NCBI RefSeq assembly: GCF_020253525.1
Contig: NZ_JADCBK010000037.1
Location: forward strand, 1-55,130
Direction: 5' to 3'
Source of the DNA: Aquidulcibacter sp.
GTDB lineage: Bacteria > Pseudomonadota > Alphaproteobacteria > Caulobacterales > Aquidulcibacteraceae
Length of the DNA stretch: 55,130 bases
Shown here: in pieces, positions 1,635 through 55,129 of the stretch
Numbering within the stretch: the first letter of the stretch is position 1
How the letters are laid out: each line of letters begins with the position of its first letter
Notes under the pieces: generated by a model
What the model saw: the letters and a program-made list of their open reading frames with translations, nothing else
Told to the model about the DNA's origin: nothing
The model's database searches: none
Made by a program: the position numbers and the translations under genes

Positions 1635-1703
1635 TGACGACGACGTATTTTTTCAAACCAGTCGGCTTGTGCGGGGGCGCAGGTCGACTCGAGAAAAGAC
1701 CTT

Positions 1704-2171
1704 ATGCCAGATCTTGCAGACCTTATCCGTGCTGACGCCATCGTTTTCCGGATCAAAGCACAGACAAAGAATGAAGTCCTCTTGGCCCTTTCCGAGGCGG
1801 CTGTCGCAGCCTATGGGGTCGATTTGTCGGCCACGTTGGAATCGACGCTTGAGCGGGAGCGTTTGGGCAGCACAGGCGTTGGCGAAGGCGTGGCCATTCC
1901 CCATGCCCGCCTGAAGGGCTTGAAGGCCCCAGCCGCGGTTTTGGCCTTATTGGATCCGCCGGTTGACTTTGAAGCACCCGATGGTCGGCCTGCCGATATT
2001 GTTGTGCTGTTGCTTTCGCCCGAAGAAGCAGGTGCCGATCACTTAAAGGCGCTGGCGCGCATTTCCCGCTTTCTCCGCCGTCAAGATGTACGCGATGGCT
2101 TGCGCGCAGCCCGCTCTGCGGCCGCCATTCACGCCTTTACCACCCAATCGTCGGCCTCTGAAGCCGCATAA
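1704..2171 (+). CDS. ptsN: Nitrogen-PTS EIIA component
   Basis: EIIA-Ntr is the terminal phosphoacceptor of the regulatory PTS (PtsP-NPr-EIIANtr), which in alphaproteobacteria affects potassium transport, the stringent response and carbon/nitrogen balance. The 155-residue product is a single PTS EIIA type-2 domain. The phosphorylated histidine is in GEGVAIPHARLKGLK (~residues 63-77), after the conserved LGSTGVGEG. The start ATG follows GAGAAAAGACCTT, a weak ribosome site. It lies 69 bp downstream of hpf on the same strand and is probably co-transcribed. The call rests on the IPHAR motif plus the rpoN-hpf context. Confidence 0.95.
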   Translation: MPDLADLIRADAIVFRIKAQTKNEVLLALSEAAVAAYGVDLSATLESTLERERLGSTGVGEGVAIPHARLKGLKAPAAVLALLDPPVDFEAPDGRPADIVVLLLSPEEAGADHLKALARISRFLRRQDVRDGLRAARSAAAIHAFTTQSSASEAA

Positions 2172-2173
2172 AA

Positions 2174-2204
2174 AGGTCGGCCACAGCGCATGCTGGGCCG
2201 ACCT
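2174..2204. terminator. Bidirectional hairpin terminator between ptsN and the DUF533 gene
   Basis: A perfect 9-bp GC-rich stem (AGGTCGGCC paired with GGCCGACCT) is preceded by AAAAA and followed by ATTTGTT. It sits between two convergent genes, so it can end transcription from both sides. Confidence 0.75.
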
Positions 2205-2227
2205 ATTTGTTACCAAGCACCGCAAGC

Positions 2228-2908
2228 TTAGGCCGGCAGCAATGCCTCATCATGCACTTTTGCAACCAGTGCCGGCTCCAGCTTCAAGCGGGTCGCTAAA
2301 TCTGCCAAATAGGCCTTTTCAGCTGGGCCTTGGGTGTTGATCGCCACCAGAGAGGCCGCATAAATCTCCAGCGCCAATTCAGGCGACGTGGCATCGGCCA
2401 CCACTTGCCCAATGTCCAACGGCTTGGCCAATTCATCAAACAAGAAGGCCTTTTCACTGTCGGACAAGTCGATCTTGGCCAAATGGTCAAACAATTTAGC
2501 CTTTTCAGCCGCCTCAATTTGACCATCTGCCTTCATGGCCGAGATCATGGCGCGAATGGTTGCCTTGCCCACGGCTTCTTGATCTTGCGCATTGCTGGGC
2601 AGAAACACACCGCTGGGCGCAGTCTCCGTCCCGGCCTTACCTTGATGTTTCTGATAGGCATTATAGGCCAAAGTGCCCAAAGCCGCGAGGCCGCCCAAGG
2701 TTGCCGCTTGGCGACCAAACTTACCCGCAACGCCCGACAACAAGAGCCCACCCAAAACGCCAGCCGCACCAGCGCCCAGGGCAATATTTTTAGCATCTGC
2801 ATCGGTCTTGACGCGATCCACACCGGCCTGCCCCTCGGTCTTGATGGCAGAGATGGCTTTAGGCAGCTCGCTTTGCAGCGCAGCGAAAATCTTATTGGCG
2901 TCAAACAT
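2228..2908 (-). CDS. DUF533 / TerB-like inner-membrane protein
   Basis: 226 residues of the DUF533 (YebE-like) family. A short N-terminal helix (start MFDANKIFAALQSELPKAIS) leads into a glycine-rich hydrophobic segment, ~residues 45-85, containing AAGVLGGLLLSGVAGK, probably membrane-inserted. The C-terminal ~120 residues (from QEAVGKATIRAMISAMKADG) match a TerB-like all-helical domain. GGAGACATGAG lies just before the ATG. YebE-type proteins are linked to envelope stress in enterobacteria, but the function is not established and nothing nearby adds to it. It is convergent with ptsN across a terminator. Confidence 0.85.
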   Translation of the reverse strand: MFDANKIFAALQSELPKAISAIKTEGQAGVDRVKTDADAKNIALGAGAAGVLGGLLLSGVAGKFGRQAATLGGLAALGTLAYNAYQKHQGKAGTETAPSGVFLPSNAQDQEAVGKATIRAMISAMKADGQIEAAEKAKLFDHLAKIDLSDSEKAFLFDELAKPLDIGQVVADATSPELALEIYAASLVAINTQGPAEKAYLADLATRLKLEPALVAKVHDEALLPA

Positions 2909-3091
2909 GTCTCATGTCTCCTCGGGGCTGGCACTCATTCCAAGCCATGTTCCATAGATTGGGAGGCTGCGCCTTGCATGCAAGAGCGTGTTCACGAACA
3001 GTTGCTCAAACCCCTGCGTCGTTGTATCAGGCCCCATCTTTTGCCCTCAATCAGCAAAAGCCAGACGTGGGCCCACCCACATCAAAAACGT

Positions 3092-3167
3092 GCCGCAATA
3101 GCTCAGTCGGTAGAGCACATCATTCGTAATGATGGGGTCGCAGGTTCGAATCCTGTTTGCGGCACCA
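3092..3167 (+). tRNA. tRNA-Thr (anticodon CGT)
   Basis: A full cloverleaf can be drawn by hand: acceptor GCCGCAA/TTGCGGC with 7 pairs, D-stem GCTC/GAGC, anticodon stem CATCA/TGATG with loop TTCGTAA (anticodon CGT at 3125-3127), T-stem GCAGG/CCTGT and T-loop TTCGAAT. The CCA end is encoded (3165-3167). A run of T follows directly. It marks the left border of the accessory region. Confidence 0.95.
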
Positions 3168-3914
3168 GTTTTTTCTTAAAAATCAATTATCTACAGCCGG
3201 GATCAAGCTTCGAAATAGGTGGGATTATATACCTATTTTTGGTTTGCTACCAATTTGCTACCAAGGTTTGGAGGCCTTGGTGGGTAACGGGGGCTGCAAA
3301 TAAATCTGCAAGTCGAGCATATCCCGCGCATTCAAAGTGTGACTTACGATGACCCTTGTCGGTTTATTGCGAAGTGAATTGGTCAACCATGGTGCCAGCA
3401 ATCGGCTTGGCAATTTTGTCTGGTTCGATAACGCACGGAAAATGCAATCCTATCTCAGCACAGCTACGGCTGATTTATCCTAGCTAAGATTGGCAATCAT
3501 TGGCCGATTGCGGAAGGGACGGTTTGGAGTTCCGAAAGTCAAATTGCGGCCGCCGCTTTGACCTAGTTGACGCTATGACGCACGAGCAATCAGATACCCG
3601 ATCCTACAATGGCAAGAGCGCCTTATGCATTAATCTTATCAAGCTATCGTCCAGCGATCGAATTTCTGCTTCTTTTGGTAAAGCTGGCTAAACTTCAACA
3701 TATAGCTGGAGCAGAAGGGCTACATTGGCCCCGACCCGATTTACTAACATTACCTTCCAGTGACGATCTCGCGACCTTTACGCTCTGCCAATGCTTTATT
3801 GACCTATTATATAATAGAGATTGAGTAGCTTAGATTTCTGGAGTAGAACGCTGCCAAAGAGACTATGGCGTGCGCTGTTAAAAACCCGCCCAAATTGGAA
3901 ACAGTCAAGCAAGA
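3168..3914. other. Non-coding stretch between tRNA-Thr and the accessory genes
   Basis: About 750 bp without a convincing gene. The open frames here (for example 3500-3691 and 3609-3824) have no recognisable domain and no ribosome site. Apart from the repeats near the tRNA I see nothing functional. The stretch is locally A+T-rich, as expected at the edge of acquired DNA. Confidence 0.6.
3213..3264. repeat. Tandem 11-bp repeat and inverted repeat beside the tRNA (possible integrase arm sites)
   Basis: TTTGCTACCAA occurs twice back to back at 3243-3253 and 3254-3264. Just before it, AAATAGGT (3213-3220) and ACCTATTT (3231-3238) form a perfect 8-bp inverted repeat with a 10-bp spacer. Short direct repeats this close to a tRNA 3' end look like the arm-type sites bound by tyrosine integrases. 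No integrase gene is present, so this is inference. Confidence 0.45.
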
Positions 3915-4781
3915 ATGATCATTGGCGTTCACCACATAGGCTTAATGGTCGCAAAACGCTTGCATGCGCCGTGGCTTGAGCACATCTGCACATTTGTAGC
4001 CGATGGATGGTGTGTTGGCCCAAACATTCATCTCAAACTTGAGGTCAACCATAACCCAATTGCACAACCGACAATAAGCCGGCCGGTAAACATGCCGGGG
4101 ATAGCGCACATATCCCTTCAGTCCCGTGATATAGACGAAGGGCTAGCGCGCGGTTTGCAGGCTGGACTGGTACCTTTATCCGAGCCAGTCGATCTAGGGA
4201 CGCCTTTTCGTTACCTTTACGCCCATACCGATGACGGTATATTGCTGGAATTAGAAGGCGCGCCATTTGTTCGCGACGCCGACCCTCGTTATTGGATTGG
4301 ACACATCGCTTTTGTTGCACGCGATATCGAGCCCCTGGTTGGATTTTACGCACGAGCACTTGGGTTAAAAGCCAGCGCGGTTTTGAGGCTGCAGGCCAAT
4401 GCAGGTGTGGATAAAGTGGCTGGCCTGAAAGATGTTGACCTCAGCGCCATGTGGCTGCCTGGTTTGAATTTGGGCCTCGAGTTTTGGCAATATCATAATC
4501 CCGTCCCAGCCCCTGACCTAACGCAAGTAAGCACAGGGTTTCAGTATTTATGTTTTGAATGCACCGATTTCGAGGCTGACTACGCTCATGTCGTGAGTCA
4601 GGGTGGTGTGCCCGACACACAATATCATTTAGAACTGACAGCCTGCAAAAGTGCAGCCTTCAAGGACCCGGAAGGCAATGGCTTTAGGCTGATTGCTTTT
4701 GATGATGCCGATGATCCCATGGCGATCAAAAACTTACCTCACAGAGACATTTTGGCGCGAGTCAGCTCTCAGTTAGTTTAA
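3915..4781 (+). CDS. Two-module VOC (glyoxalase/extradiol-dioxygenase fold) protein
   Basis: 288 residues with two vicinal-oxygen-chelate modules. Module 1 opens with GVHHIGLMV, continues with MPGIAHISLQSRDID and ends with DDGILLELEG, so an H/H/E metal set is possible. Module 2 opens with WIGHIAFVARDIEPLVGFYA, but the second histidine position reads GFQYLCFEC and the usual glutamate position reads GFRLIAF, so its ligand set appears lost. Module 1 is shorter than module 2 by roughly 25 residues after GLMV. Such proteins include ring-cleavage dioxygenases and lyases or isomerases of aromatic breakdown. Next to two SDR genes and an epoxide hydrolase, a catabolic role is likely; the substrate is unknown. 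It may be partly degenerate. Confidence 0.75.
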   Translation: MIIGVHHIGLMVAKRLHAPWLEHICTFVADGWCVGPNIHLKLEVNHNPIAQPTISRPVNMPGIAHISLQSRDIDEGLARGLQAGLVPLSEPVDLGTPFRYLYAHTDDGILLELEGAPFVRDADPRYWIGHIAFVARDIEPLVGFYARALGLKASAVLRLQANAGVDKVAGLKDVDLSAMWLPGLNLGLEFWQYHNPVPAPDLTQVSTGFQYLCFECTDFEADYAHVVSQGGVPDTQYHLELTACKSAAFKDPEGNGFRLIAFDDADDPMAIKNLPHRDILARVSSQLV

Positions 4782-4782
4782 C

Positions 4783-5550
4783 TTAAAAGTTGGCACTTTT
4801 CAGGGCGGCTCCATCAATGCGCAGATTTGCGCCCGTGATGTAACTTGCTAGTGGTGAACACAGAAAGGCGACCGGATCGGCTACTTCCTCGGGCGTCGCG
4901 TGTCGGCCCAGCGCTGCTAAGCGCGCGGCGGCAGCAAATAATTGTGGTGCCCCAGTCCTCACCTCATCCCAGAATCCGCCCTCAAACATCACCGGTCCCG
5001 GCGACACCGCATTGACGCGTATGCCTGCTGGACCGTACTTGGCAGCCAATTGACCGGTCAGTGAGATCACACCGGCTTTCATCGCGCCGTACGCATCCTC
5101 TCCCGGTGGCAACTGGGTTAGGCCTGAGGCAATGGAAGCGATAAACACTAATGAGGGGTCCTTGCCTTGCTTGAGGTATGGGATAGCCGCTGTAGCGATC
5201 CGAACGTGCTGGAGAAGATCAACTTCAAAGCTCTCGCGCCAGGCTTCTTCGCCTCCTTTAGTTGGCCGCGTGGACACATTGCTGACGACAATGTTGAGGC
5301 CGCCAAGGTTCTTCACAGCCGCTTCGAACCATGTGCCAAAAGCACTTTCATCACGAACATCTAAAGCCTGTCCAAAGGCGCGGACCCCGAGGTTGGCAAA
5401 CTCTGCTTGGGCTTTGTCAACACCACCTTGCGAACGTGCACAAAAAGCAACATCACAACCTTCGCGCGCTAGTCGATGCGCAATAGCATAGCCAATGCCG
5501 CGCGTTGCGCCGGTAACAACAGCGCGTTTTCCTTTCAGATTGAGGTCCAT
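4783..5550 (-). CDS. Short-chain dehydrogenase/reductase
   Basis: A 255-residue classical SDR, an NAD(P)-dependent alcohol/ketone oxidoreductase. The cofactor glycine motif TGATRGIG is at ~residues 13-20. The catalytic serine is in FIASIASG, followed by the YxxxK pair in DAYGAMKAG. The usual NNAG motif reads VSNVST, an unusual variant at a position that normally helps hold the Rossmann fold. The C-terminus SYITGANLRIDGA is typical. It is the last gene of a minus-strand set (epoxide hydrolase, SDR, SDR), 21 bp after the upstream SDR and convergent with the VOC gene with 1 bp between them. Substrate unknown. Confidence 0.9.
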   Translation of the reverse strand: MDLNLKGKRAVVTGATRGIGYAIAHRLAREGCDVAFCARSQGGVDKAQAEFANLGVRAFGQALDVRDESAFGTWFEAAVKNLGGLNIVVSNVSTRPTKGGEEAWRESFEVDLLQHVRIATAAIPYLKQGKDPSLVFIASIASGLTQLPPGEDAYGAMKAGVISLTGQLAAKYGPAGIRVNAVSPGPVMFEGGFWDEVRTGAPQLFAAAARLAALGRHATPEEVADPVAFLCSPLASYITGANLRIDGAALKSANF

Positions 5551-5571
5551 GAACGTGTGTCCTTTCGTGGT

Positions 5572-6378
5572 TTAGCGCGCCACCATGCCACCATCGATGG
5601 GTAGCGAGACGCCGGTGATGTAAGAGGCCGCGTCGCTGCACAGCCACAAAGCTGCCTCAGCGACTTCTTCAGGTTCACCATAGCGGTTCATTGGGGAATT
5701 GGCGGCAAAAGCCGCACGAATAGAACTGGGATTATCGGGGGCCAATTCGCGCTCTAGCTTAAACATCATTTCAGTTGCTGTCGGCGAAGGACAAACAGCG
5801 TTTACACGTATGTTATGTGCTGCGAGTTCAACGGCTGCAGCTTTGGTTAAACCAATCACGGCATGTTTGCTGGCGGTATAAGCGTTTATGTTACGCCCGC
5901 CTGTAAAGCCGACAATCGACGATGTGTTTACAATGGCGCCTTTGCCACGTGCCTTCATGGCCAGACCAGCGTGCTGGATTCCTAAGAATACACCACGCAC
6001 ATTCACTGCCATCACGCGATCAAACTCAGCCTCTGGGTAAGAGAGAATGGATGCGCGTGGACCTGTTATGCCAGCGTTGTTAAATAGCGCATCCAGTCCG
6101 CCGAAGTCGTGCTCTGCCAATGCTAGGGCACGGATCCAGTCCGCAGTTTTCGAAACGTCGCCGCAGATCGTTGCTAATGCCTCGTCTTTTCTAGCGGCGC
6201 GCAATGCCTCAAGCCCTTGTTCATCCATATCAAAGGCAATCACGCGGGCCCCATGCCTCATAAACAAATTGACCGCCGCCAAGCCAATGCCACTGGCCGC
6301 GCCTGTGATCAGGACGGTTCGGTTTTCAAGGCCCAAGTTTGGCAAATTAGTGGATCGATTCACAGATTTCCTCGTCAC
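5572..6378 (-). CDS. Short-chain dehydrogenase/reductase
   Basis: A 268-residue classical SDR. It has the cofactor motif VLITGAASGIG (~residues 23-33), intact NNAG in ALFNNAGITG, the catalytic serine region VNTSSIVGFTGG, YTASKHAV as the YxxxK site, and a C-terminal SYITGVSLPIDGG. A different SDR lies directly downstream. Paired SDRs in catabolic clusters often carry out successive oxidations, which fits the epoxide-hydrolase relic upstream because diols are typical SDR substrates. That link is inference. The family call is secure, the substrate unknown. Confidence 0.92.
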   Translation of the reverse strand: MTRKSVNRSTNLPNLGLENRTVLITGAASGIGLAAVNLFMRHGARVIAFDMDEQGLEALRAARKDEALATICGDVSKTADWIRALALAEHDFGGLDALFNNAGITGPRASILSYPEAEFDRVMAVNVRGVFLGIQHAGLAMKARGKGAIVNTSSIVGFTGGRNINAYTASKHAVIGLTKAAAVELAAHNIRVNAVCPSPTATEMMFKLERELAPDNPSSIRAAFAANSPMNRYGEPEEVAEAALWLCSDAASYITGVSLPIDGGMVAR

Positions 6379-6445
6379 TTCATTTCCTATTATACATATC
6401 GTCGATAACGAAGATCCGGCTCAAGTCAAGGTATGTTGCCGCCGC

Positions 6446-7335
6446 CTAACAACACTGGGACAAAAATCCCTCTACGAGTTGGGCGCAGAAGGTAGGACGT
6501 TCGCGAAACACGCAATGTCCTGCGCCCTCAATTTCGCTGATCTCACAATTTGGAGCAATCTCTCCAAGGCCCAACAGGGTAGATGGCGCGAAGAGTGCAT
6601 CATTCGTACCCCAAACCAAAAGTGTCGGACTTATCACGGGTTTAGGAGGTTGGCGGCGTTGACTTGGGTTACCGCTATAGTCGAACCTGGCCGCACGATA
6701 CCAATTAAGCATAGCTTCCCATGCGCCATCTTGTTTCCATTGAGCAATCTGAATGGCCTTGTCGTCTTGGCTCAGGAGCCCTTCAGCGAAGTCTTTGCCA
6801 AAGATAGCGTCCCATGTTTCGCTGTCAGTTTTCGCTTCAAAGGCCTTGTGGGAATCGGCTTGCGCAAACTGCGCAGCATAAGATGACGCAGCGCGCTGTG
6901 CGAGGTCGGTATCGAGCGCCAACTGCAAGCAATAAGGGTGAGGCGCGTTAAAAATCACCATCTTGCGCACAAGGTCGCGATGGCGGCTCCCAAAATGCCA
7001 AGCAACTAGCCCCCCCAGTCATGGGCAACAATATCCACCTGCTGATAGCCATAGGCAGCAATCAAATTGGCAATGTCATCTGCGAGAAAGTCTACTCTAT
7101 AGTCATTCTGGTCACGTGGTCGTGACGATTGGCCAAAGCCGCGTTGGTCTGGCGCGATGCAATGATGGCGTGAGCTTAAGGACTTCATCATTGGGCTAAA
7201 GGCGCGCCAATGTTCTGGGAAGCCGTGCAGAAAAACAACCGGCGGCCCCTCTCCAATCGTGCCGACATTCAACGTGATAGCACCACAAACTATCGGCTTT
7301 TCATCGAACCCTAAGGGAGTACACAGAGACGTCAT
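6446..7335 (-). pseudogene. Epoxide hydrolase-like alpha/beta hydrolase, frameshifted at a G7 tract
   Basis: Two minus-strand frames make one alpha/beta hydrolase. The 5' part (7335-7006) carries the oxyanion motif HGFPEHW and the nucleophile elbow VAHDWGG, with Asp as nucleophile as in epoxide hydrolases, then stops at TAG. The 3' part (from about 7010 to 6446) carries the acid region LLVWGTNDALF and the catalytic His region GAGHCVF. The break is in a run of seven G (C7 on the plus strand, ~7010-7016). Adding one G restores DWGGLVAWHFGSRHRDLVRK across the junction. Either the gene is inactive, the tract is phase-variable, or there is a sequencing error. It lies upstream of two SDRs and is divergent from the TetR gene. 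Confidence 0.85.
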
Positions 7336-7435
7336 CTCTACTTATTGGAACATTCGTCAATTGCTTGCAAGTCAGAGGTTCACAAACTGTCAGAAAGCCG
7401 TTATTAGAAAAATAAATTCACAGGTTTAATAAGGT

Positions 7436-8092
7436 ATGCCTTTGACCCAAACTGCCAAACCGCGCCGGACACGTCTTGCTCCTGAAGAGCGTAGTCAATT
7501 GATCCTCGATGCGGCGGCCCAAATTGTCGTTAATGAGGGCGTTAGTGCTGTAAACATGGATCGGCTCGGCCGTGATGCGGGGATTAGCAAAGCGCTGGTT
7601 TACAATTATTATCCCAACCGCAGTGAGTTGTTGCGCGCTTTACTGTTGCGCGAAGTACGTCTGTATCAAGCCCAACAGCTCAGCGCGGCTGAAAGCGCCC
7701 CTGACGTTGAGTCGCTCATCCGGATAACGACGCGGGCCTATCTTGATCATATCGCCAAAAAAGGCGTGTTGATCGAACGTCTCATGAGCGAGCCTTCAAT
7801 TGCTCAAGGTATGGGTGAAATGGAGCGGCAAGGGCGAGCGCGCACGGTTGAGTACTTTGCCATCAAACTCAAAGAAGGCCTTTCAATGCCGATTGAGCTT
7901 GCGCGCATGTTGACAGAGCTTGGCATGGGTCTGACAGGTGCTGGAGGAGCTTATTTGGACCGTACTGGCTGCAACATTGATTTGCTTGAAGATATGATCG
8001 TTTCGATGCTAATGGCCAATATCTCAGCCGTTGAGAAGGACTACGCCAACTGGCGAAAGGTTGAAACGGCGGGATTACGTCTAAGAACTTAG
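7436..8092 (+). CDS. TetR-family transcriptional regulator
   Basis: 218 residues. The N-terminal ~60 carry a TetR helix-turn-helix (RSQLILDAAAQIVVNEG, then GISKALVYNYYPNRSELLRA). The rest is the variable ligand-binding and dimerisation region. It is transcribed away from the epoxide hydrolase/SDR set and towards the transporter-receptor run, so it is the obvious candidate regulator of both. The effector is probably the pathway substrate (inference). AAGG is 1 nt before the ATG, a poorly placed ribosome site. I found no clear palindromic operator in the 100-bp divergent gap. Confidence 0.9.
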   Translation: MPLTQTAKPRRTRLAPEERSQLILDAAAQIVVNEGVSAVNMDRLGRDAGISKALVYNYYPNRSELLRALLLREVRLYQAQQLSAAESAPDVESLIRITTRAYLDHIAKKGVLIERLMSEPSIAQGMGEMERQGRARTVEYFAIKLKEGLSMPIELARMLTELGMGLTGAGGAYLDRTGCNIDLLEDMIVSMLMANISAVEKDYANWRKVETAGLRLRT

Positions 8093-19319: not shown

Positions 19320-19391
19320 GCGCCATGTTTAGGGGGCAGCCTGATCGACCTGCACCCCCATGAGCTGTGGTTCCGATCTTGGCTATTTCTA

Positions 19392-19566
19392 CTTGGACAG
19401 CCTTTGCCGAAGGCTCTGCTTAGGCAAAGGCTTTGCTCGAGTTTGGGCGCGCAAGATAGGGCGTCAACAAGCGCGCCTTAGGCGCGTCGGCGGAGCCGAT
19501 TTCACCTCTTGACTCCCCATCTTGCGCAATAAGAATTGTCGGATGGCTTCAAGGCACGCGGAGCGC
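19392..19566 (+). repeat. 175-bp palindrome-rich repeat, left copy
   Basis: It holds hairpin A (19399-19432, AGCCTTTGCC with GGCAAAGGCT) and a larger palindrome B (19449-19527, ends GCGCAAGAT and ATCTTGCGC). A conserved tail GGCTTCAAGGCACGCGGAGCGC overlaps the beginning of the next ORF. The same unit occurs inverted at 23933-24109, with hairpin A and the ends of B conserved exactly. Function unknown. Confidence 0.8.
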
Positions 19567-23932: not shown

Positions 23933-24109
23933 GCACTCCGCTTGCCTTGAAGCCGCACGACGATTGTCTCTGCGCAAGATATGACGTCAAGGGGTGCAAT
24001 CGGCTTCGCCGACGCGCCGCAGGCGCGCCCCTTGACGCCAGATCTTGCGCGCCCAAACTCAACCTAAGCCTTTGCCCAGGCAGAGCCTGCGGCAAAGGCT
24101 GTCCCAAGA
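23933..24109 (-). repeat. 175-bp palindrome-rich repeat, right copy (inverted)
   Basis: Reverse-complement counterpart of 19392-19566. Hairpin A is at 24067-24100 and palindrome B at 23972-24050, with TCAAGGGG paired to CCCCTTGA inside it. The conserved tail (GGCTTCAAGGCAAGCGGAGTGC on the minus strand) is at 23933-23954. Here the inner palindrome pairs better than in the left copy, so this may be the less decayed version. Confidence 0.8.
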
Positions 24110-24204
24110 GAAAAAACCAAAACCAAACCTATCGGGAACGAAAAAGGTGCATGCCTTGCAGAACCCACCCCCAAGCGCGACGCAAAATGGGAAAGCCCAA
24201 TCGG

Positions 24205-45535: not shown

Positions 45536-45603
45536 CGGCTGGCTTTAGCGCGCGAGGCCTTGTGGGGCAAGGCGCGGGGTTCGCCTTGATGACACCAAGG
45601 GCG

Positions 45604-45696
45604 ATGTCATCCCGGACGGCGTAGCCGATCCGGGATCTCCTGCCGCAAAGTCCCCTGAGGTCTCCGCTCTCCACTTCGTTCCGGTGGGGATGACAT
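45604..45696. repeat. REP-like palindromic element
   Basis: Outer arms ATGTCATCCC (45604-45613) and GGGATGACAT (45687-45696) are exact inverted repeats. Nested inside, ATCCCGGA (45609-45616) and TCCGGGAT (45629-45636) form a second hairpin. The element sits in the 300-bp gap upstream of rimO, and similar TCATCCCGGA elements are common between alphaproteobacterial genes. Confidence 0.75.
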
Positions 45697-48027: not shown

Positions 48028-49101
48028 TTAGGCCCCATGCCAGTGCACAAAGCGGCCATGGGGATCAATATCTGCCAGCACCCGCTTGCGCCCAGACGGC
48101 CACTCGATCAGTTCCAGAGTCATGCTGGCACCATCTTGAGCCCGTCCCAAAATCCCACCGGGCTCATACCGTAACCACGCCAGCGGGGCCTCAGGCGTGG
48201 CGCGTGCGCCTTCGGTCTCAATGGCCAGCGTGATGGCATCGCGTACGGCTTGCGGCGGATATTGGAAGAAGACGGAATGATAGATGACCGTCAAAGCATC
48301 TTTCGCGCGGGCCGCAAGCTTGGCCTTAATCCAGTCACCTGCATCGCCTTTGTCGGGTGTGATGGACTGAGCCGCGGCAATTTCCATCGCCGCATTCAAC
48401 CGCTCTAACCGCTCGGGCTGGTCAGGCCAGATATAGGCGCGTAAGCGCAAACGGTCTTCTGGCAAAGCCGCGTTCAGGGGGTTTTGGTCGCAGGCCGCGC
48501 GGTTGCGGATGGCGGCATGGGCTGGAAAGCGCGGAGCAGGGCCGCTCCACTGGGTTGAGAGTTCGACGCGCGGTCCCGCGATGGGGCTGTCCCACTGCCA
48601 GCTGCCAAAATCATAATGAAAGCGGTCCATGCTGAGATTGAGCCCGGCCGATGCCCCAAGCTCCAGCACGTCTATCGGCCCGTCAAAAGCCTCAGCGGCG
48701 GCACACAGGCCGGGCCACAGGCCCATAGCGCGGCGCACTTCATTGGTCTGTGGTGGGGACTTTAGAAATTCGCGCACCCACGCCCCTCGCATGCGCAGGC
48801 TTTCCACCGCGACCGGCCAAGCTTCCGCCATAGACCAAGGGCGGCCTTGCTGCGGCCAGACTTGCGCCAAACTGCCATCAGGATCGGTCAGGACAAGGGC
48901 ATGCAGGGCACCTGCCAAGCGCAGCGCCAAAGCATCTTGGATCGGATGGGTTATCCACGCCTGCGTCAAGTCTGCGATGATGCCACCCGCTTCAAAGTCC
49001 GCGGCCATGATGTCGCAGAGCTGGGCTGTAAAGGGGGAGTCGAACGCTTTGCACCAAATGGCTTGTTGTCGCAGAGCCTCTGGGATTGTGACATCTACCA
49101 T
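48028..49101 (-). CDS. DUF2332 protein
   Basis: 357 residues of the DUF2332 family. The N-terminal part has LRQQAIWCKAFDSPFTAQLC. The centre has PIDVLELGASAGLNLSMDRF, a glycine-rich loop like the SAM-binding motif of methyltransferases, and ALTVIYHSVFFQYPPQAVRD lies further on. A methyltransferase-like fold is therefore plausible, though the family is uncharacterised. Its start overlaps the upstream CoA-transferase stop by 1 nt, so it is the last gene of the vapB-to-DUF2332 run. Confidence 0.85.
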   Translation of the reverse strand: MVDVTIPEALRQQAIWCKAFDSPFTAQLCDIMAADFEAGGIIADLTQAWITHPIQDALALRLAGALHALVLTDPDGSLAQVWPQQGRPWSMAEAWPVAVESLRMRGAWVREFLKSPPQTNEVRRAMGLWPGLCAAAEAFDGPIDVLELGASAGLNLSMDRFHYDFGSWQWDSPIAGPRVELSTQWSGPAPRFPAHAAIRNRAACDQNPLNAALPEDRLRLRAYIWPDQPERLERLNAAMEIAAAQSITPDKGDAGDWIKAKLAARAKDALTVIYHSVFFQYPPQAVRDAITLAIETEGARATPEAPLAWLRYEPGGILGRAQDGASMTLELIEWPSGRKRVLADIDPHGRFVHWHGA

Positions 49102-50270
49102 CAGATCGCACCACGCGCCTTCAAGGCCGCAATTGCGCTGGCATCAAGGCCTGCCTCTGCCGCCAAGCTTTCCGAATCGGCCCCATAGTCTGGCAAGGTC
49201 AAGCGCGCTTCGCCCGGCTCATCACGGAAGCGAATGGGAATGCCCAAATGCTTATGTCCGTCTGCATCGGTCAGCACCATGCCGCGCGAGATTGTATAGG
49301 GGTCTTCCATCGCATCCTTTAGGCTGCGCACGGGGGCCCAGCACAGATCGACGTCCTTTAGAAAGTCGCTCCACTCGTCCAAGGTCTTGCTGGCAAAGGT
49401 TTCCTCAAAATAGCGCTTGAGCGGGTCTTGGCCGGGGCCGGGCTCAAGCTTGGCATAGTCGAACAGATCAGGCCGGCCCAACGCGTCGAGCAAGTTTTTC
49501 GCGAAATGATGCTCGGACCCACCCAAGACCAAGAACTTTCCATCCTTGGTCTCATAAGGCCGATACATGGCCGCGCCACCAAATGGCCGCATCTCCTTTG
49601 CTACGGGATGGGCATTATCGGCAAAGACGGGCCCAAGAACATTGGGCGTCCAAGCCAGAAGGGCATCATACATAGAAAGATCGATATAATCGCCCTTGCC
49701 CGTTTCTGCGCGGCGATAGAGGGCCATCATGATCGCGGCAAATGCCATCAGGCTCGCGGCCATATCCGCCGCCGGGATAGACGGGCTGGCGGGCTTATTG
49801 TCGGTCAGGCCCCGGTTCAGATCAACCAGCCCCGCCATGGCTTCCATGGTGAGATCATGACCGGGTTTGTTCACATATTTGCCGTCTTGGCCAAAGCCCG
49901 CGATAGAGCAGTAGACGATGCGCGGATTGATCGCGGCAATCGTGTCATAATCCACGCCAAGCCGCTTCACGACGCCCGGACGGAAAGCTTCAACAATCAC
50001 ATCCGCCTCTGCGGCCAGCTTCAAGAACAGCGCACGCGCCTCAGGATCTTTCAGATTGATCTTCAGGCTGCGCTTGCCCCGCGCGATATTGCGAAACCAG
50101 ACCGACACGCCGTCTTCGGTCTTATAGCCGATCACGCGGGTCGGTTCGCCCACGCCATTGGCAGGCTCTACCATCACCACATCGGCCCCATGGTCAGCCA
50201 TCATCATGGTCATATGGGGCCCTGGCAAAAAGGCGGAGAGGTCCAGAACTTTGAGGCCTTGGAGTTTCAT
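49101..50270 (-). CDS. CaiB/BaiF family III CoA-transferase
   Basis: 389 residues. Family III enzymes move CoA between carboxylic acids (formyl-, succinyl- or acyl-CoA). Signature stretches: KLQGLKVLDLSAFLPGPHMT, then ADHGADVVMVEPANGVGEPT, KINLKDPEARALFLKLAAEA and PRIVYCSIAGFGQDG. The catalytic Asp is in the KPGHDLTMEAMAG region (~residue 137). By pattern it is close to alpha-methylacyl-CoA racemase or other CaiB proteins. A second family member directly upstream (3 nt apart) is not a duplicate. A role in acyl-CoA breakdown fits the acyl-CoA dehydrogenase ~4.5 kb away. Confidence 0.92.
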   Translation of the reverse strand: MKLQGLKVLDLSAFLPGPHMTMMMADHGADVVMVEPANGVGEPTRVIGYKTEDGVSVWFRNIARGKRSLKINLKDPEARALFLKLAAEADVIVEAFRPGVVKRLGVDYDTIAAINPRIVYCSIAGFGQDGKYVNKPGHDLTMEAMAGLVDLNRGLTDNKPASPSIPAADMAASLMAFAAIMMALYRRAETGKGDYIDLSMYDALLAWTPNVLGPVFADNAHPVAKEMRPFGGAAMYRPYETKDGKFLVLGGSEHHFAKNLLDALGRPDLFDYAKLEPGPGQDPLKRYFEETFASKTLDEWSDFLKDVDLCWAPVRSLKDAMEDPYTISRGMVLTDADGHKHLGIPIRFRDEPGEARLTLPDYGADSESLAAEAGLDASAIAALKARGAI

Positions 50271-50273
50271 CGC

Positions 50274-51407
50274 TCAATGTTCTCCCATTTTGGGTGCCCG
50301 TTTTCCAACGGGCCGCTTGCCATTGACTTTGATCGGGCTGGCCAGCATGCGCAAGCGGCCACCCGGTGCGTCGGGATGGTCGACCGCATCGGTCATGCCA
50401 ATGGCCTTCACATGGGTGCTGTCGAGGGCTTGGCCGATGTCATAAATGGGCGCGACAGGGACGTGGCCGCCCAAAAGCGCGATCCACGCAGCCGTTGTAT
50501 CTCTGCCCAGCACGTCATCCAAAACCGCTGTCAAATCCGCCAGATTCTGGCGTCGCGCCGGGATGCTGGCAAAGCGGGGATCGGTAAGCAGGTCTGGGCG
50601 GCCGACTTTGGCGCAAAAAATCTCCCAGAATTTGGGGGTCTGGCACATCAGCATCAACCAGCCATCTTGGGTCTTAAAGGCTTGGCTGGGCGCAATGGAC
50701 GGGTGCGCTCCGCGCGGCAAGCGGCCCACTTCGACGCCCTCATTCAAATACCACGTGGCGGGATAGGAGAGTTGGTGAAGCGCGGTATCAAACAATGCCA
50801 CATCGATGTCACAGCCTTGACCGGTACGGTGCGCACCCAAAATGCCCGCCAGAAGGCCCACGGCCAATTGGCTTCCAGTGTGAAAATCAATGATCGACAG
50901 ACCGCACCGAACCGGTGGGCCATCGGGTTCGCCACTCATCGACATTAGGCCCGCTTCGGCCTGCATCAGATAATCATAACCGGGCCAAGATGCCCGCTCA
51001 TTATCCCGTCCGTAGGCGGAAAGATGTGCGCAGACGATCTTGGGATTGATGGCTTTCAAATCTTCATAGGTGATGGCCATCTTGGCAGGCTGATCGCCAC
51101 GCAGATTATTGGCCACAGCATCGGCCTCTTTGACCAATGCCTCAAACTGCGCCCGGCCTTCGGCAGTCTTGATCTCGAGCGCGATGGAGGATTTGCCGCG
51201 CGAAAAGGTCTGATAGAATTGGCTGTCTTGCTCGCCCAGAAAGTAAGGGCCTGTCGCGCGGCTCACATCGCCGCCCATGCTGGGTGCCTCAATCTTGATG
51301 ACTTCGGCACCCAGATCCGCCAGCAACATCGTGCCATAGGGGCCTGCGCCATATTGCTCAATCGACAGGATTTTAATGCCCGTTAGGGGAAGGCCAGATG
51401 TCTGCAT
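50274..51407 (-). CDS. CaiB/BaiF family III CoA-transferase
   Basis: 377 residues of the same family: LPLTGIKILSIEQYGAGPYG, then LLADLGAEVIKIEAPSMGGD, SSIALEIKTAEGRAQFEALV and PKIVCAHLSAYGRDN. The active-site Asp lies in SWPGYDYLMQAEAGLMS (~residue 155). Its stop is 3 nt before the next CoA-transferase, and its start overlaps the lipocalin stop by 1 nt. Two different CaiB proteins side by side may form a heteromer or act on successive acyl-CoA esters. Confidence 0.92.
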   Translation of the reverse strand: MQTSGLPLTGIKILSIEQYGAGPYGTMLLADLGAEVIKIEAPSMGGDVSRATGPYFLGEQDSQFYQTFSRGKSSIALEIKTAEGRAQFEALVKEADAVANNLRGDQPAKMAITYEDLKAINPKIVCAHLSAYGRDNERASWPGYDYLMQAEAGLMSMSGEPDGPPVRCGLSIIDFHTGSQLAVGLLAGILGAHRTGQGCDIDVALFDTALHQLSYPATWYLNEGVEVGRLPRGAHPSIAPSQAFKTQDGWLMLMCQTPKFWEIFCAKVGRPDLLTDPRFASIPARRQNLADLTAVLDDVLGRDTTAAWIALLGGHVPVAPIYDIGQALDSTHVKAIGMTDAVDHPDAPGGRLRMLASPIKVNGKRPVGKRAPKMGEH

Positions 51408-51964
51408 TAGGGCTGAACCGTCTCTTTGAGGAGGTCTGTGCGAAAGCCATTGCGCTCTGCTGCTGCATTCAACGCGGCGCGCTGCTCGGCGGTGATGGTC
51501 TTGGTGCGGGCCAATAGCCAGAGGTAAGCGCCATTAGGGCTGCCAACCAAGGCCGTCTGATACTCGGGGTCGAGATAAATCACCCAATAATTGCCTTGCC
51601 CCTTTGGCAGGGGAATCGGCGCGAAATTGACCGCCAGCTTCGCATTGTTCGAGCCCGCAATGACCGCGGCCACCCCTTGCGCGCTGCGCGGTTTGCCGTC
51701 GCTGGTGCCTGTCGCACAGGTGTTGGTGACGCTGACCCGACCATCGGGGCGCAGGGCATATTCGGCGGTCACGCCCTCGCACTTTTTCTGGAAACTATTA
51801 GGGTAGCGGGCAATCTCATACCATTTGCCAGCATAGCGATTAAGATCAACAGCGGCGACCGTGGTGGGGGGTGCGGCATCCTTTGCCCGCCCCATGGTTC
51901 CGGCAATGCAGCCCGATAGTGCAACGCAGCCCGCCAGAATGGAGGCCAAAAGTGAAATTCTCAT
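51407..51964 (-). CDS. Bacterial lipocalin (Blc-like lipoprotein)
   Basis: 185 residues. Signal peptide with lipobox (LASILAGCVALSGC). The lipocalin barrel follows: DLNRYAGKWYEIARYPNSFQ (the GxW motif), then CEGVTAEYALRPDGRVSVTN and NYWVIYLDPEYQTALVGSPN. Blc-type lipocalins bind lysophospholipids or fatty acids at the outer membrane. The start overlaps the GFA gene stop by 4 nt. Lipid binding would suit the CoA-transferases next to it (inference). Confidence 0.93.
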   Translation of the reverse strand: MRISLLASILAGCVALSGCIAGTMGRAKDAAPPTTVAAVDLNRYAGKWYEIARYPNSFQKKCEGVTAEYALRPDGRVSVTNTCATGTSDGKPRSAQGVAAVIAGSNNAKLAVNFAPIPLPKGQGNYWVIYLDPEYQTALVGSPNGAYLWLLARTKTITAEQRAALNAAAERNGFRTDLLKETVQP

Positions 51965-52374
51965 GCTGTTTCCCCTTCCGTGGGTGGAGCAGACTTATGG
52001 GCCAGTTTGGCGGCATTGGCTTCCCAATTCTGACCATCAAAGGGCACAATCGAAAGGACAGGCGCTTGACCGGGATCAAAGCAATTAGCGTTGACGCTGA
52101 CCCCATCGGGGTTAGAGCGCGGGGTATAGAAAGCTTTCACGCCACATCGGGTGCAAAAGGTATGATTGGCGACTCCGGTGTTGAACCGATAAGACGTCAG
52201 CTTATCCGCGCCAGCCGTTAGCTCAAAATGCGCCATCGGCACAATCAGATGTACAAAGCCCGTCCGTGTACAGATGGAACAATTGCAGGCTTCGGCTTCA
52301 ACCGCATCGGAGGTGAACACGCGAAAGCGCACGTCGCCACAATGGCACGAGCCGGTGCGCCAAGTCTTTACCAT
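51961..52374 (-). CDS. GFA-family (CENP-V/glutathione-dependent formaldehyde-activating) protein
   Basis: 137 residues. Zinc-binding motifs of the Gfa fold: TGSCHCGDVRFRVF, then EACNCSICTRTGFVHL and TFCTRCGVKAFYTPRSNPDG. Gfa helps formaldehyde react with glutathione, but most family members are uncharacterised. It overlaps vapC by 7 nt on the 5' side and the lipocalin gene by 4 nt on the 3' side, so its translation appears coupled to both. Confidence 0.93.
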   Translation of the reverse strand: MVKTWRTGSCHCGDVRFRVFTSDAVEAEACNCSICTRTGFVHLIVPMAHFELTAGADKLTSYRFNTGVANHTFCTRCGVKAFYTPRSNPDGVSVNANCFDPGQAPVLSIVPFDGQNWEANAAKLAHKSAPPTEGETA

Positions 52375-52760
52375 CCCAACACCTCTAAGTCCGTGATTTC
52401 TTCAAAGTCTTGCGGATTGAGCGTCACCAATGTGGCCTGTGCATTTAGGGCTTGGGCAGCAATCATCCGGTCTAGGATTTTGCGACGTGAAAACCCACGT
52501 GATCGTAAGATGAGGCCATATTTCTCGGCGTCTTTTTCTTCGAAGGGGAGCACGGGCATGAAGGAAAGGAATACATCAAGTCGCTGTCGCCTAAGTGCTG
52601 CGGACGATGGCTCTCGGTGTACGCCACCCTCAAGCTCAACACGCGTGATGACAGAAATCGCAAGCCGCCCGCTTAAACTTTGCAGCTTATCTAGAATGTC
52701 CCGACTGCGATCGCGAACTTCAAGGGCAACGCTGGTATCGAGCAGGTAAAGCGGGCTCAT
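52368..52760 (-). CDS. vapC: PIN-domain toxin of a VapBC-type pair
   Basis: 130 residues with a PIN ribonuclease domain. Acidic residues of the active site: Asp in YLLDTSVALEV (residue 8), Glu in ISVITRVELEGGVH, and Asp residues in RKILDRMIAAQALN and TLNPQDFEEI. VapC toxins cut tRNA or rRNA and stop growth unless bound by the antitoxin. The start overlaps the antitoxin stop by 4 nt (ATGA). It is unusual in being followed without a gap by metabolic genes. Confidence 0.9.
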   Translation of the reverse strand: MSPLYLLDTSVALEVRDRSRDILDKLQSLSGRLAISVITRVELEGGVHREPSSAALRRQRLDVFLSFMPVLPFEEKDAEKYGLILRSRGFSRRKILDRMIAAQALNAQATLVTLNPQDFEEITDLEVLGW

Positions 52761-53008
52761 AACCCCTCGCGTTCAGGAAAGATATCGGGATCGCGCGCTT
52801 CAATGTCGGCGACGTCAGGCAGGTTACGGAGCTCTGCTAGCATTTGTTGGAAACTAATCTTGCCGGACCGCGGGGTTGGTCGCAGGGTAATAACATCCCC
52901 TTCGCGTTCCATCTCCAGCTCCGTGCCATCCGGAAAGGCCAGCGCCTTTGGCAAGCGAACCGCTTGGCTATTGCCGCTTTTGAAGGTCTTGGTTCTGTAG
53001 GGTGCCAT
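52757..53008 (-). CDS. vapB: AbrB/SpoVT-type antitoxin of a VapBC pair
   Basis: 83 residues from ATG 53008 (MAPYRTKTFKSGNSQAVRLP), chosen for GGAGG ~8 nt upstream; the open frame begins 10 codons earlier inside the operator. The N-terminal ~50 residues form a swapped-hairpin DNA-binding fold (KSGNSQAVRLPKALAFPDGT). The C-terminal tail (LRNLPDVADIEARDPDIFPE) is the toxin-binding part. It neutralises the PIN toxin and represses its own operon through the palindrome just upstream. Confidence 0.9.
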   Translation of the reverse strand: MAPYRTKTFKSGNSQAVRLPKALAFPDGTELEMEREGDVITLRPTPRSGKISFQQMLAELRNLPDVADIEARDPDIFPEREGL

Positions 53009-53029
53009 GGTCCTGTCCTCCAATGGTCG

Positions 53030-53045
53030 TATATACATGTATATA
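53030..53045 (-). promoter_or_regulatory. Palindromic operator of the vapBC operon
   Basis: TATATACATGTATATA is a perfect 16-bp palindrome ending 22 bp before the vapB ATG. It fits a VapB dimer site for autoregulation. Confidence 0.7.
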
Positions 53046-53097
53046 CATGATTGCCGGGTTAGGGGCTACGGGTGAGAAATCTTATTAGGATAAGCCG

Positions 53098-53631
53098 TCA
53101 AACATGGCGCTCCCGCTTCAAATACGCGTCTCGGGTTTGGCCCCATTTGTCATTTTGGACTTTGTCATAGGGGGGCGGCAATTGGACCGGCCCTAAATTT
53201 CTGGATCCGATTTTCGTCGCGATGGCACAAGAAGCAAGATTTTCAGGACGAATCGTATGGATAATGTGGGGCCATTTCAGGACATCAAAAATCCAGTCAC
53301 GACACGCGCTTGCGGCCTCGACGGCATAGCCCTGACCTTGGTAACGCGGCGCAATGACCCATCCGAGTTCTCGGTCTGGCCAGCCATAGGGCTTATGAGG
53401 TCCAACACGGCCAATGAATGACCCACTTTCCCGCTCAAAAACCCCAAACACGCCATAGCCACGCAGATACCAAGACCCAGCCGCCGCCGCAAACGCACGC
53501 CAAGCTTCAGGGCCAGTTACTGGCTTTTCGCCCTCTTCAAGCAAGTCTGGATCGGCCAAAAGGGCGGCCCAAGCCTCAAAATCCGCTTCGGCGGGAGGGC
53601 GCAGAATTAGCCGGGCGGTCTCTAGGATCAT
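53098..53631 (-). CDS. GNAT N-acetyltransferase (RimJ/RimL type)
   Basis: 177 residues. Start MILETARLILRPPAEADFEA is typical of the RimJ/RimL branch. The acetyl-CoA loop is at APRYQGQGYAVEAASACRDW (Q-x-x-G-x-A), preceded by ELGWVIAP, and followed by IHTIRPENLASCAIATKIGS, the usual N-x-x-S region. RimJ/L proteins acetylate ribosomal or other N-termini, but many relatives act on small molecules; the target here is unknown. It lies alone just left of the duplicated acyl-CoA dehydrogenase end. Confidence 0.9.
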   Translation of the reverse strand: MILETARLILRPPAEADFEAWAALLADPDLLEEGEKPVTGPEAWRAFAAAAGSWYLRGYGVFGVFERESGSFIGRVGPHKPYGWPDRELGWVIAPRYQGQGYAVEAASACRDWIFDVLKWPHIIHTIRPENLASCAIATKIGSRNLGPVQLPPPYDKVQNDKWGQTRDAYLKRERHV

Positions 53632-53636
53632 TGCGG

Positions 53637-53714
53637 TCCACCCCCCTAAATCGGATTGCGGGCCACCAATTGCTTGGCGATGATGATGCGTTGCATTTCG
53701 TTGGTACCTTCGCC
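53637..53714. repeat. Direct repeat, left copy: duplicated 3' end of the acyl-CoA dehydrogenase gene
   Basis: 78 bp identical to 54686-54763 except for one base (A instead of G at 53706). It encodes, on the minus strand, a severed tail EMQRIIIAKQLVARNPI with its stop and 9 bp beyond. The offset between copies is exactly 1049 bp. Confidence 0.95.
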
Positions 53715-53722
53715 TTCAGACA

Positions 53723-54685
53723 TCATGGGTTTGGGACACCTGCCTCACGTTGTAAGCGCTGCAAGGCAATCTTCTCTAAACATAATGAAGTCAGTGACCC
53801 AGTCGTCTCCGGCATCAAGGGCCCACCGCTACCAAGGCGCGAAATTGGTGAGAAGCACCCAAGAGGACGGCTAGGATCAATAGACTGAATACGGAGCATA
53901 ACGGGCTTGCCAATCTCGGAAGGCCGCAAGAGTTCAATTGTCACACCACCGAAGCGTTGGGTAATTGTTTGATCGGTTTCGTTCCATTTGAACGGTAATA
54001 AGCCAAATAGCTCCTCATCACCATTTTGGTTCTTGAAACCCCAGTGGAGGCGATAGTCCCACTTTACATATCCACGCTCAACTTTGAACCAAATGGTATC
54101 GGGTGTGAACGCCTCGCGACCGATAGGGCGGTATGTGGCCCGATTTTTAGCATCGATATAGATACATAATCCGACGCCCATAGTGCCAAATTGCATTCTT
54201 GCCGGCAACCAGGATGTCTGAAATGTGCCTCCACCTTTCGTCGTGCAAACATAATCAAGGGTGCCGCTATTCTTCGAATCGCCAAAACATCGGCGCACGG
54301 TCGAGCTGAACCGCGTATCGCAATAAACTGTAGCATTACTTCCGCCACGCACTTTGGCGAGCCTTGTTCCAATCGGCAAAGCTGGGTCAAGAAACTCTGC
54401 GCCCTTTGGCGACGTTAACTCGACCCCACCGTCAGGGACGACATTAACTTCAACAATTGGTTGACCTTCGCTTTCATTGGTTGCCGCGGTGCCTTCATTG
54501 ACCGGCAAAATCCATAACAATGGCAGGACGGGTGACAAATCCCGATCGCTTGGCGCCACAATTCGATCAGAAGCAGCACCGCTTAAAGGCACTAGCGATC
54601 CAATCAGCAACAAAGAGTACGCTAAATTCCTCATGACAAGAGCCCTAAGAATTGAGGGTGGCTTCATCCGCATTCGCTCTTTCAT
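53723..54685 (-). CDS. Exported protein of unknown function, sole gene of a 1049-bp insertion
   Basis: 320 residues. A hydrophobic signal (RNLAYSLLLIGSLVPLSGAA) follows a basic start; ATG codons at residues 1, 5 and 7 all precede it. The mature part (VEVNVVPDGGVELTSPKGAE, TVYCDTRFSSTVRRCFGDSK, YVCTTKGG, GLCIYIDA) has several cysteines and a beta-rich pattern. I recognise no family. Its first codon abuts the right repeat copy and its stop is 8 bp from the left copy, so the gene fills the inserted unit. It is locally more A/T-rich than the neighbours. Confidence 0.75.
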   Translation of the reverse strand: MKERMRMKPPSILRALVMRNLAYSLLLIGSLVPLSGAASDRIVAPSDRDLSPVLPLLWILPVNEGTAATNESEGQPIVEVNVVPDGGVELTSPKGAEFLDPALPIGTRLAKVRGGSNATVYCDTRFSSTVRRCFGDSKNSGTLDYVCTTKGGGTFQTSWLPARMQFGTMGVGLCIYIDAKNRATYRPIGREAFTPDTIWFKVERGYVKWDYRLHWGFKNQNGDEELFGLLPFKWNETDQTITQRFGGVTIELLRPSEIGKPVMLRIQSIDPSRPLGCFSPISRLGSGGPLMPETTGSLTSLCLEKIALQRLQREAGVPNP

Positions 54686-54763
54686 TCCACCCCCCTAAAT
54701 CGGATTGCGGGCCACCAATTGCTTGGCGATGATGATGCGTTGCATTTCGTTGGTGCCTTCGCC
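54686..54763. repeat. Direct repeat, right copy: native 3' end of the acyl-CoA dehydrogenase gene
   Basis: Covers the last codons and stop (54695) of the acyl-CoA dehydrogenase and 9 bp beyond. It pairs with 53637-53714. In this copy the reading frame is continuous with the gene. Confidence 0.95.
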
Positions 54764-55129
54764 GATGCACATCAAAGGCGCGTCGCGATAGAGGCGTTCG
54801 ATGACATATTCTTTGGAATAGCCATAGCCGCCATGGATGCGCATGGCTTCCAGCGAGACTTCGACAGCGGTTTCCGAGGCGAAGAATTTCGCCATGCCTG
54901 CTTCCATGTCGATCCGCTCACCCCGGTCAAAGGCGGCAGCGGCATCCTGGGTCAGAAGTTCGGCGGCGCGTGTCTTGGCGGCCATTTCGCCCAGCTTCAG
55001 CTGGATGGCCTGATGCTCACAGATCGGTTTGCCCATGGTCTTGCGCATTTGGGCATATTTGACGCTTTCGGCCAAAGCGCGCTTGGCGATCCCGACCGAG
55101 CGGGCTGCGATATTGACGCGACCAATCTC
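54695..55129 (-). CDS. Acyl-CoA dehydrogenase, C-terminal part (cut by window edge)
   Basis: About 144 residues to the stop; the frame is open to the right edge, so the N-terminal two-thirds are outside. It catalyses FAD-dependent alpha,beta-dehydrogenation of acyl-CoA. Visible: EIGRVNIAARSVGIAKRALA, RKTMGKPICEHQAIQLKLGE (FAD-binding region), MRIHGGYGYSKEYVIERLYR with APLMCIGEGTNEMQRIIIAK. The GYG and the Glu of EGTNE (the catalytic-base position in short/medium-chain enzymes) are present. The 3' end is duplicated 1 kb downstream. Confidence 0.96.
   Translation of the reverse strand, partial: EIGRVNIAARSVGIAKRALAESVKYAQMRKTMGKPICEHQAIQLKLGEMAAKTRAAELLTQDAAAAFDRGERIDMEAGMAKFFASETAVEVSLEAMRIHGGYGYSKEYVIERLYRDAPLMCIGEGTNEMQRIIIAKQLVARNPI

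What the first reader, a model, noticed from the sequence alone, without database searches (positions are those of the whole stretch)
53637..54763. Single-gene insertion flanked by a 78-bp direct copy of the acyl-CoA dehydrogenase 3' end
The last codons, stop and flanking bases of the acyl-CoA dehydrogenase gene are present twice, 1049 bp apart, with one mismatch in 78 bp. Between them is exactly one gene for an exported protein, starting at the base after the right copy and ending 8 bp before the left one. The dehydrogenase frame remains intact, so the inserted DNA carried a replacement 3' end, as integrative elements do at tRNA genes. There is no integrase or transposase. Possibilities are a cassette mobilised in trans into the 3' end of a protein gene, or a lateral duplication of a larger locus. 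I know of no described element of this form.
Basis: partly seen in the sequence, partly recalled or inferred. Interest (0 to 1): 0.8.

Follow-up and report, generated by a model that had tools for sequence, protein, structure and literature searches.

The report
Orphan gene inserted, target end duplicated
In one freshwater bacterium a stray gene with no known relatives sits between two neighbouring genes, flanked by a 78-letter copy of the end of the upstream gene, which looks like a recent one-off insertion of a kind already described in other bacteria rather than a new mobile element.

Summary
The last 22 codons, stop and next 9 bp of an acyl-CoA dehydrogenase (ACAD) gene occur twice (53637-53714, 54686-54763), 77/78 identical. 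Between them lie 971 bp with one 320-codon orphan gene. The genus is Aquidulcibacter. Seven of eight congeners hold the locus; none has the orphan gene. Three show a true empty site (ACAD, one copy, then the acetyltransferase GNAT), three have neither gene, one has other small cargo. The orphan protein has no credible relative in the searches made and looks foreign (low GC, marginal codon usage). Both copies share a 9-base post-stop string found at this place in no congener, so the duplicated DNA is the recipient's own target, not an imported 3' end. No recombinase adjoins it, the genome has no Ku, 80 ACAD loci elsewhere lack a second copy, and no other gene-derived direct repeat passed the filter in 1.06 Mb sampled from two genomes. 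The pattern matches 'insertion with long target duplication' (Nobusato et al. 2000, Helicobacter pylori). Most likely it is a one-off repair- or replication-coupled insertion that left both neighbours intact: a clean new example of a known, poorly explained pattern, not evidence for a new cassette system.

The parts
54686..54763 (-). right repeat copy: last 22 codons, stop and 9 bp after the ACAD stop, continuous with the ACAD gene
53637..53714 (-). left repeat copy: same 78 bp with one mismatch, continuous with the acetyltransferase gene start (ancestral ACAD-GNAT junction)
53715..54685 (-). inserted segment, 971 bp, GC 50.4% against 55.3% for the window; no DNA match in 59 other genomes of the family
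53723..54685 (-). orphan gene, 320 aa, hydrophobic N-terminus then six Cys; no credible relative in Pfam, PHROGs, NCBIfam, PDB, plasmids, phages, or (close relatives only) viral and genome contigs, nor in the genomes searched
54695..55129 (-). acyl-CoA dehydrogenase, C-terminal 144 residues (PF00441); N-terminal part on contig C144
53098..53631 (-). GNAT acetyltransferase (PF13302), directly after ACAD in three relatives
52757..53038 (-). MazE-type antitoxin (PF04014), conserved downstream synteny
52368..52760 (-). PIN-domain protein (PF01850), conserved downstream synteny
53715..53728 (.). last 14 bp of the insert at the left junction; 13/14 inverted match to 54209-54222 inside the orphan gene
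54209..54222 (.). internal partner of the terminal 14-bp inverted match

Best explanation
A one-off insertion with long target duplication. A roughly 1-kb piece of foreign DNA carrying most or all of one orphan gene entered the boundary between the ACAD and GNAT genes. The 78 bp of recipient DNA at the target were copied so that one copy stayed with each neighbour. Most likely route (inferred): repair or replication synthesis left the ACAD 3' end, copied or joined the foreign fragment, and resumed on recipient DNA 78 bp upstream; a staggered break with 78-nt ends filled in would give the same product. Because the copied unit holds the ACAD stop and the GGGGGGTGG ribosome-binding-like stretch before GNAT, ACAD keeps its own end, GNAT keeps its own leader, and the orphan gene sits in the operon behind a copy of that leader. 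Shown: repeat, empty sites, duplicated DNA of the recipient's own lineage, no relative found. Inferred: the enzymology, co-transcription and function.
For: Empty site: in G003, G007 and G008 ACAD is followed within 14-18 bp (stop included) by GNAT, with one repeat copy and no orphan gene. Orphan gene in 0 of 8 congeners searched, 7 of which hold the locus. Both copies share the post-stop string GGGGGTGGA, found at this place in none of 7 congeners; the mismatch base of the ACAD-side copy (C) is that of 5 of 7 congeners, the GNAT-side T that of 1 of 7. Insert GC 50.4% against 55.3%; 18 of 520 sampled ORFs are lower in GC than the orphan gene, and 27 of 344 score lower by codon usage. No Ku in the genome. 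The 78 bp do not fold better than shuffles. The same pattern is named in print from H. pylori strains. Amarir-Bouhram et al. 2011 confirmed inserts with 109-950 bp duplications of the target in E. coli by sequencing 14 clones.
Against: No donor sequence was found, so the donor side of the junctions cannot be read. Only three of the seven congeners carry GNAT here, so the post-stop string is strictly comparable in three. The hints of template switching are weak and found afterwards: a 6-bp in-register match (TGATGT) five bases before the left junction, and a 13/14 inverted match of the insert's last 14 bp to its own interior, a score reached by 5 of 1000 shuffles. A circular donor carrying the 78 bp would give the same product. 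One H. pylori paper considers such an insertion possibly site-specific (PMC4978471 passage). No reads were available to check the contig or to see whether the unit is tandemly repeated.
Confidence: 0.65

Rival explanations
1. Single crossover of a circular (or circularised) molecule that held the orphan gene next to a 78-bp piece of the ACAD 3' end. Integration by homologous recombination leaves the insert between two copies of the shared piece.
For: Gives exactly this structure in one step. Experimental precedent: 56 of 60 Lac- clones gave the PCR product diagnostic of a duplication, and sequencing of 14 confirmed 109-950 bp duplications. A like model is preferred for Arabidopsis genes flanked by genic repeats.
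Against: The donor must already have joined the orphan gene to the recipient lineage's own ACAD end, including the 9 post-stop bases found at this place in no congener, which needs an earlier event. No such donor found in plasmids, phages or viral contigs.
Confidence: 0.2
2. A non-autonomous single-gene element moved by a recombinase in trans into an attachment site at the ACAD 3' end, as e14 does at icd but without its own integrase.
For: Duplicated protein-gene 3' end with the frame kept, as in e14/icd. The spot is variable in the genus. A site-specific insertion with long target duplication has been considered for one H. pylori system.
Against: No second 3'-end copy downstream at 80 ACAD loci: only exact matches of 13-15 nt in 5 of them, against 78 nt in the window as control; none at the 7 congener loci (3 of the 80 are congeners too). 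The 78 bp do not fold better than shuffles. Both copies are of the recipient's own lineage. No adjacent recombinase; the rest of the genome was not surveyed for one.
Confidence: 0.06
3. Assembly artefact near a contig end.
For: The repeat-bounded unit lies 367-1493 bp from the contig end, in a genome of 167 contigs; no reads were available.
Against: The contig end is in ACAD sequence outside the repeat, and the next contig follows after about 3 bp. Both junctions join DNA that is not repeated in the sample. A false join inside the repeat would still need a real orphan-gene/ACAD-end fusion. No second allele of the site was found in the assembly.
Confidence: 0.07

Closest known systems
Insertion with long target duplication (Nobusato, Uchiyama, Ohashi, Kobayashi 2000, Gene 259:99; original not held, seen in passages of PMC1643837, PMC3031569, PMC2749054, PMC4978471)
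   Same: Insertion seen against an empty site in a close relative, flanked by a long direct copy of the target; insert of low GC, as PMC2749054 says of the R-M cases.
   Different: Cargo is an orphan, probably exported protein, not a restriction-modification gene; host is an alphaproteobacterium; compared between species, not strains.
e14 prophage in icd of E. coli (PMC6379469, passages)
   Same: A protein gene's 3' end is duplicated around the insert and the gene keeps a working end.
   Different: e14 is a prophage integrated site-specifically that supplies the icd end and duplicates 163 bp; here no integrase adjoins, the cargo is 971 bp, and the copies are of the recipient's own lineage.
Duplication-forming single crossovers in E. 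coli conjugation (Amarir-Bouhram et al. 2011, PMC3240628, section 12 and passages)
   Same: Foreign DNA accompanied by a duplication of part of the target gene.
   Different: The donor there was built with homology to the target; here no donor homology is known. Duplications there were 109-950 bp.
Transposed genes with flanking genic repeats in Arabidopsis (PMC2869330, abstract and passages)
   Same: Single genes flanked by direct repeats of genic target sequence; three of the repeat lengths seen in the passages are 79-80 bp.
   Different: Eukaryote; the authors favour circles from tandem repeats.

Membership tests
Insertion with long target duplication | Insertion relative to an empty site in a close relative | tested here: met
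   G003, G007, G008 have ACAD-GNAT with one copy and no orphan gene
Insertion with long target duplication | Long direct duplication of target sequence flanking the insert | tested here: met
   78 bp, one mismatch, each copy continuous with its ancestral neighbour
Insertion with long target duplication | Often a restriction-modification gene as cargo (frequent association, not required) | tested here: not met
   orphan protein without any Pfam, NCBIfam or PHROGs match
Integrase-mediated integrative element | Linked or recognisable recombinase | tested here: not met
   seven proteins at 51407-55129 tested, none a recombinase; the whole genome was not surveyed
Integrase-mediated integrative element | Recurrent use of the site by other elements | tested here: not met
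   no second 3'-end copy downstream at 80 ACAD loci (3 of the 80 are congeners, 3 have under 1 kb of downstream DNA) nor at 7 congener loci
Integrase-mediated integrative element | Excised circle or empty attB in the same strain | not testable with these tools
   no reads or strain
IS or transposon | Transposase, terminal inverted repeats, short target duplication | tested here: not met
   no transposase among the seven proteins at 51407-55129; the best inverted matches of the two insert ends are internal, not to each other; duplication is 78 bp
Integron gene cassette | attC site that folds, linked integron integrase | tested here: not met
   78 bp fold z-score 0.64, 139 of 200 shuffles at least as stable; no linked integrase

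The most novel reading that the evidence does not exclude
The orphan gene with its 78-bp repeat is a minimal single-gene cassette mobilised in trans, using the 3' ends of protein genes as sites, with the copied unit carrying both the stop of one gene and the ribosome-binding site of the next so that insertion never harms an operon.
Probability: 0.05. Interest if true: 0.75.

Novelty: new member of a known kind. Interest (0 to 1): 0.32.

Why it matters
Insertion with long target duplication has been known since 2000, chiefly from H. pylori restriction-modification genes, and I saw no settled mechanism in the passages read. This is a case with a clear empty site, one mismatch in 78 bp (so probably recent), in a genome without Ku and with a non-restriction cargo. 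It suggests the pattern may be a general way for single genes to slip into operons without harming them.

Tried and rejected
Weak protein hits to the orphan gene were rejected as chance. One search gave six genomes of the order sample at E 0.002-0.009; five of their loci gave short alignments (one lies in a RadA-like frame, a recalled name; the others lie antisense to a gene, cross stops, or span 11 residues) and L025 gave none. The hit (E 7e-4) crosses stops and lies antisense to a cysteine-desulfurase-like frame, and that (E 3e-4) is a flagellar hook-like protein (both names recalled). PDB gave six matches at E 0.38 or worse. The genome contigs and viral-contig scans reach close relatives only. 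A recalled 'C..D.(D/N).(D/N)G.(F/L)D' motif idea found only the gene itself in the fetched DNA. A single-sequence structure prediction was poor (pLDDT 40.6), so no fold search was made.

Other direct repeats in the sampled DNA were considered as sister cases. Eight pairs in 663,316 bases of G000 (one is the finding) and three in 400,000 bases of G004 passed the filter (40 bp or more, 85% or more identity, spacing 150-8000). The ten others belong to dispersed repeat families, with 5-18 matches each in the sample of their genome, so I count none as a sister case; I looked closer at some of them only. The finding's own repeat has three matches there: its two copies and a 32-bp piece on contig C48.

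Rfam found nothing; the promoter and terminator scans gave no clear excess over shuffles (0 promoters against a mean of 1.3, 3 terminators against 2.0). Paper searches. led to the Arabidopsis paper; others (one animal retrotransposon review; none) were of no use.

Full report
Observation. The repeat is real: 53637-53714 and 54686-54763 are 78 bp with one mismatch, start to start 1049 bp. One search's mechanical extension to 89 bp at 93% takes in a further short in-register match beyond the core. In coding (minus) orientation each copy holds the last 22 ACAD codons, the stop and 9 bp. The right copy is continuous with the ACAD reading frame (PF00441); the left copy is continuous with the start of a GNAT acetyltransferase (PF13302). 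Between them are 971 bp with one ORF of 320 codons.

Setting. The window is contig C99 of a 3.49-Mb, 167-contig genome and ends inside ACAD. Residues 1-252 of ACAD lie at the start of contig C144, about 3 bp away by comparison with G007. Matching contig lengths and titles identify relatives: G008 is Aquidulcibacter paucihalophilus TH1-2, and G007 and G001 are MAGs.

Empty site. Of eight congeners searched, seven hold the ACAD locus and one (G006) has no match at the cut-off. The downstream order MazE-PIN-GFA-lipocalin-two CoA-transferase-like genes (the last name is recalled) is kept in all seven as far as the contigs reach (G001's contig ends within the first of these two genes). G003, G007 and G008 have ACAD then GNAT with a 14-18 bp gap, stop included; G001, G004 and G005 have neither GNAT nor the orphan gene there; G002 has a small DUF2442-like gene there (below the curated cut-off). 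The spot is therefore permissive for small cargo, but self-comparison of the eight loci finds a direct repeat only in the window's genome.

Origin of the duplication. The left copy with the GNAT start aligns to the G007 ACAD-GNAT junction, so each copy sits in its ancestral context. Both copies share a nine-base post-stop string found at this place in none of the seven congeners (strictly comparable in the three that have GNAT next; G005 shares its first five bases). At the one mismatch the ACAD-side base is that of 5 of 7 congeners and the GNAT-side base that of 1 of 7. The duplicated DNA thus most likely came from this lineage itself, and the copy no longer coding ACAD is probably the one that changed. 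One change in 78 bp against 3.7% difference from G007 over 433 bp of ACAD suggests a recent event; gene conversion could make it look younger.

The cargo. The orphan protein has no match in Pfam, PHROGs or NCBIfam and only chance-level PDB matches. It has none in 100 relatives, genome contigs, viral contigs (these two scans reach close relatives only), plasmids or phages. Samples of 398 (order), 385 (class) and 398 (phylum) genomes, own genome included, gave only what I judge chance hits. By DNA it is absent from the other 59 of 60 family genomes searched. Its GC is 50.5%; 18 of 520 sampled ORFs are lower. Its reading frame scores best of six by codon usage, but only 27 of 344 ORFs of like size score lower. 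It is probably a real gene of foreign origin. The insertion may have truncated it: its stop lies in a TGATGT that matches ACAD in register (sequence).

How rare is it? In 663,316 bases of this genome and 400,000 of G004, this is the only two-copy, gene-derived direct repeat that passed the filter; the other ten pairs are members of dispersed repeat families. At 80 ACAD loci found in named genomes (3 of them the congeners above) no second 3' end lies in the DNA held downstream (286,239 bases in all; 3 loci have under 1 kb): only exact 13-15-nt matches in 5 loci, while the window as control gives its 78 bp. The genome has no Ku (the control search found it in B. subtilis), so classical end joining is unlikely.

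Mechanism. Any model must copy 78 bp of recipient DNA to both sides of a foreign fragment without loss. Repair or replication synthesis that leaves and rejoins the recipient 78 bp upstream does this in one step, as does fill-in of a staggered break. The left junction has weak marks that fit template switching (5 of 1000 shuffles reach the inverted match; found afterwards). A single crossover with a circle bearing the 78 bp does it too, with experimental precedent (PMC3240628), but needs a donor already joined to this lineage's ACAD end. A site-specific cassette is least supported here, although one H. pylori paper considers a site-specific route for a like insertion (PMC4978471 passage).

Known kinds. 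'Insertion with long target duplication' was named by Nobusato et al. 2000 from H. pylori (paper not held; seen in passages of PMC1643837, PMC3031569, PMC2749054, PMC4978471 and PMC2869330). Both features I take as defining (empty site, long target duplication) are met; the usual restriction-modification cargo is not. e14 in icd (PMC6379469 passages) shows the duplicated-3'-end idea in a prophage. This case is filed as a new member of the former.

Noticed in passing
window 49101-53631 and L140-L146: Conserved ACAD-MazE-PIN-GFA-lipocalin-(two CoA-transferase-like genes) order in Aquidulcibacter with variable small cargo: GNAT in 4 of the 8 genomes with the locus, a DUF2442-like gene in G002, and extra ORFs between the last two in G003, G005 (DUF3995), G007 and G008.
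   Followed up: partly
window 19379-19566 and 23933-24120: 188-bp inverted repeat (81%) with 4366 bp between the arms; the arms belong to a dispersed repeat family also on contigs C10, C55 and C120.
   Followed up: partly
L155 171-266, window 45601-45694 and others: A second dispersed family, about 96 bp, GC-rich and palindromic-looking (GTCATCCCCG...CGGGGATGAC), with hits on 9 of the 20 contigs sampled and in the window.
   Followed up: no
L154 4747-5553: A 268-aa gene without a Pfam match lies between two dispersed-repeat copies (141 bp, 93%), between a thiolase-like and a TerC-like gene (names recalled).
   Followed up: partly
L141 (G002), just before 4006-4284 on the minus strand: The frame ahead of the DUF2442-like gene appears interrupted by an in-frame stop (sequence).
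   Followed up: no
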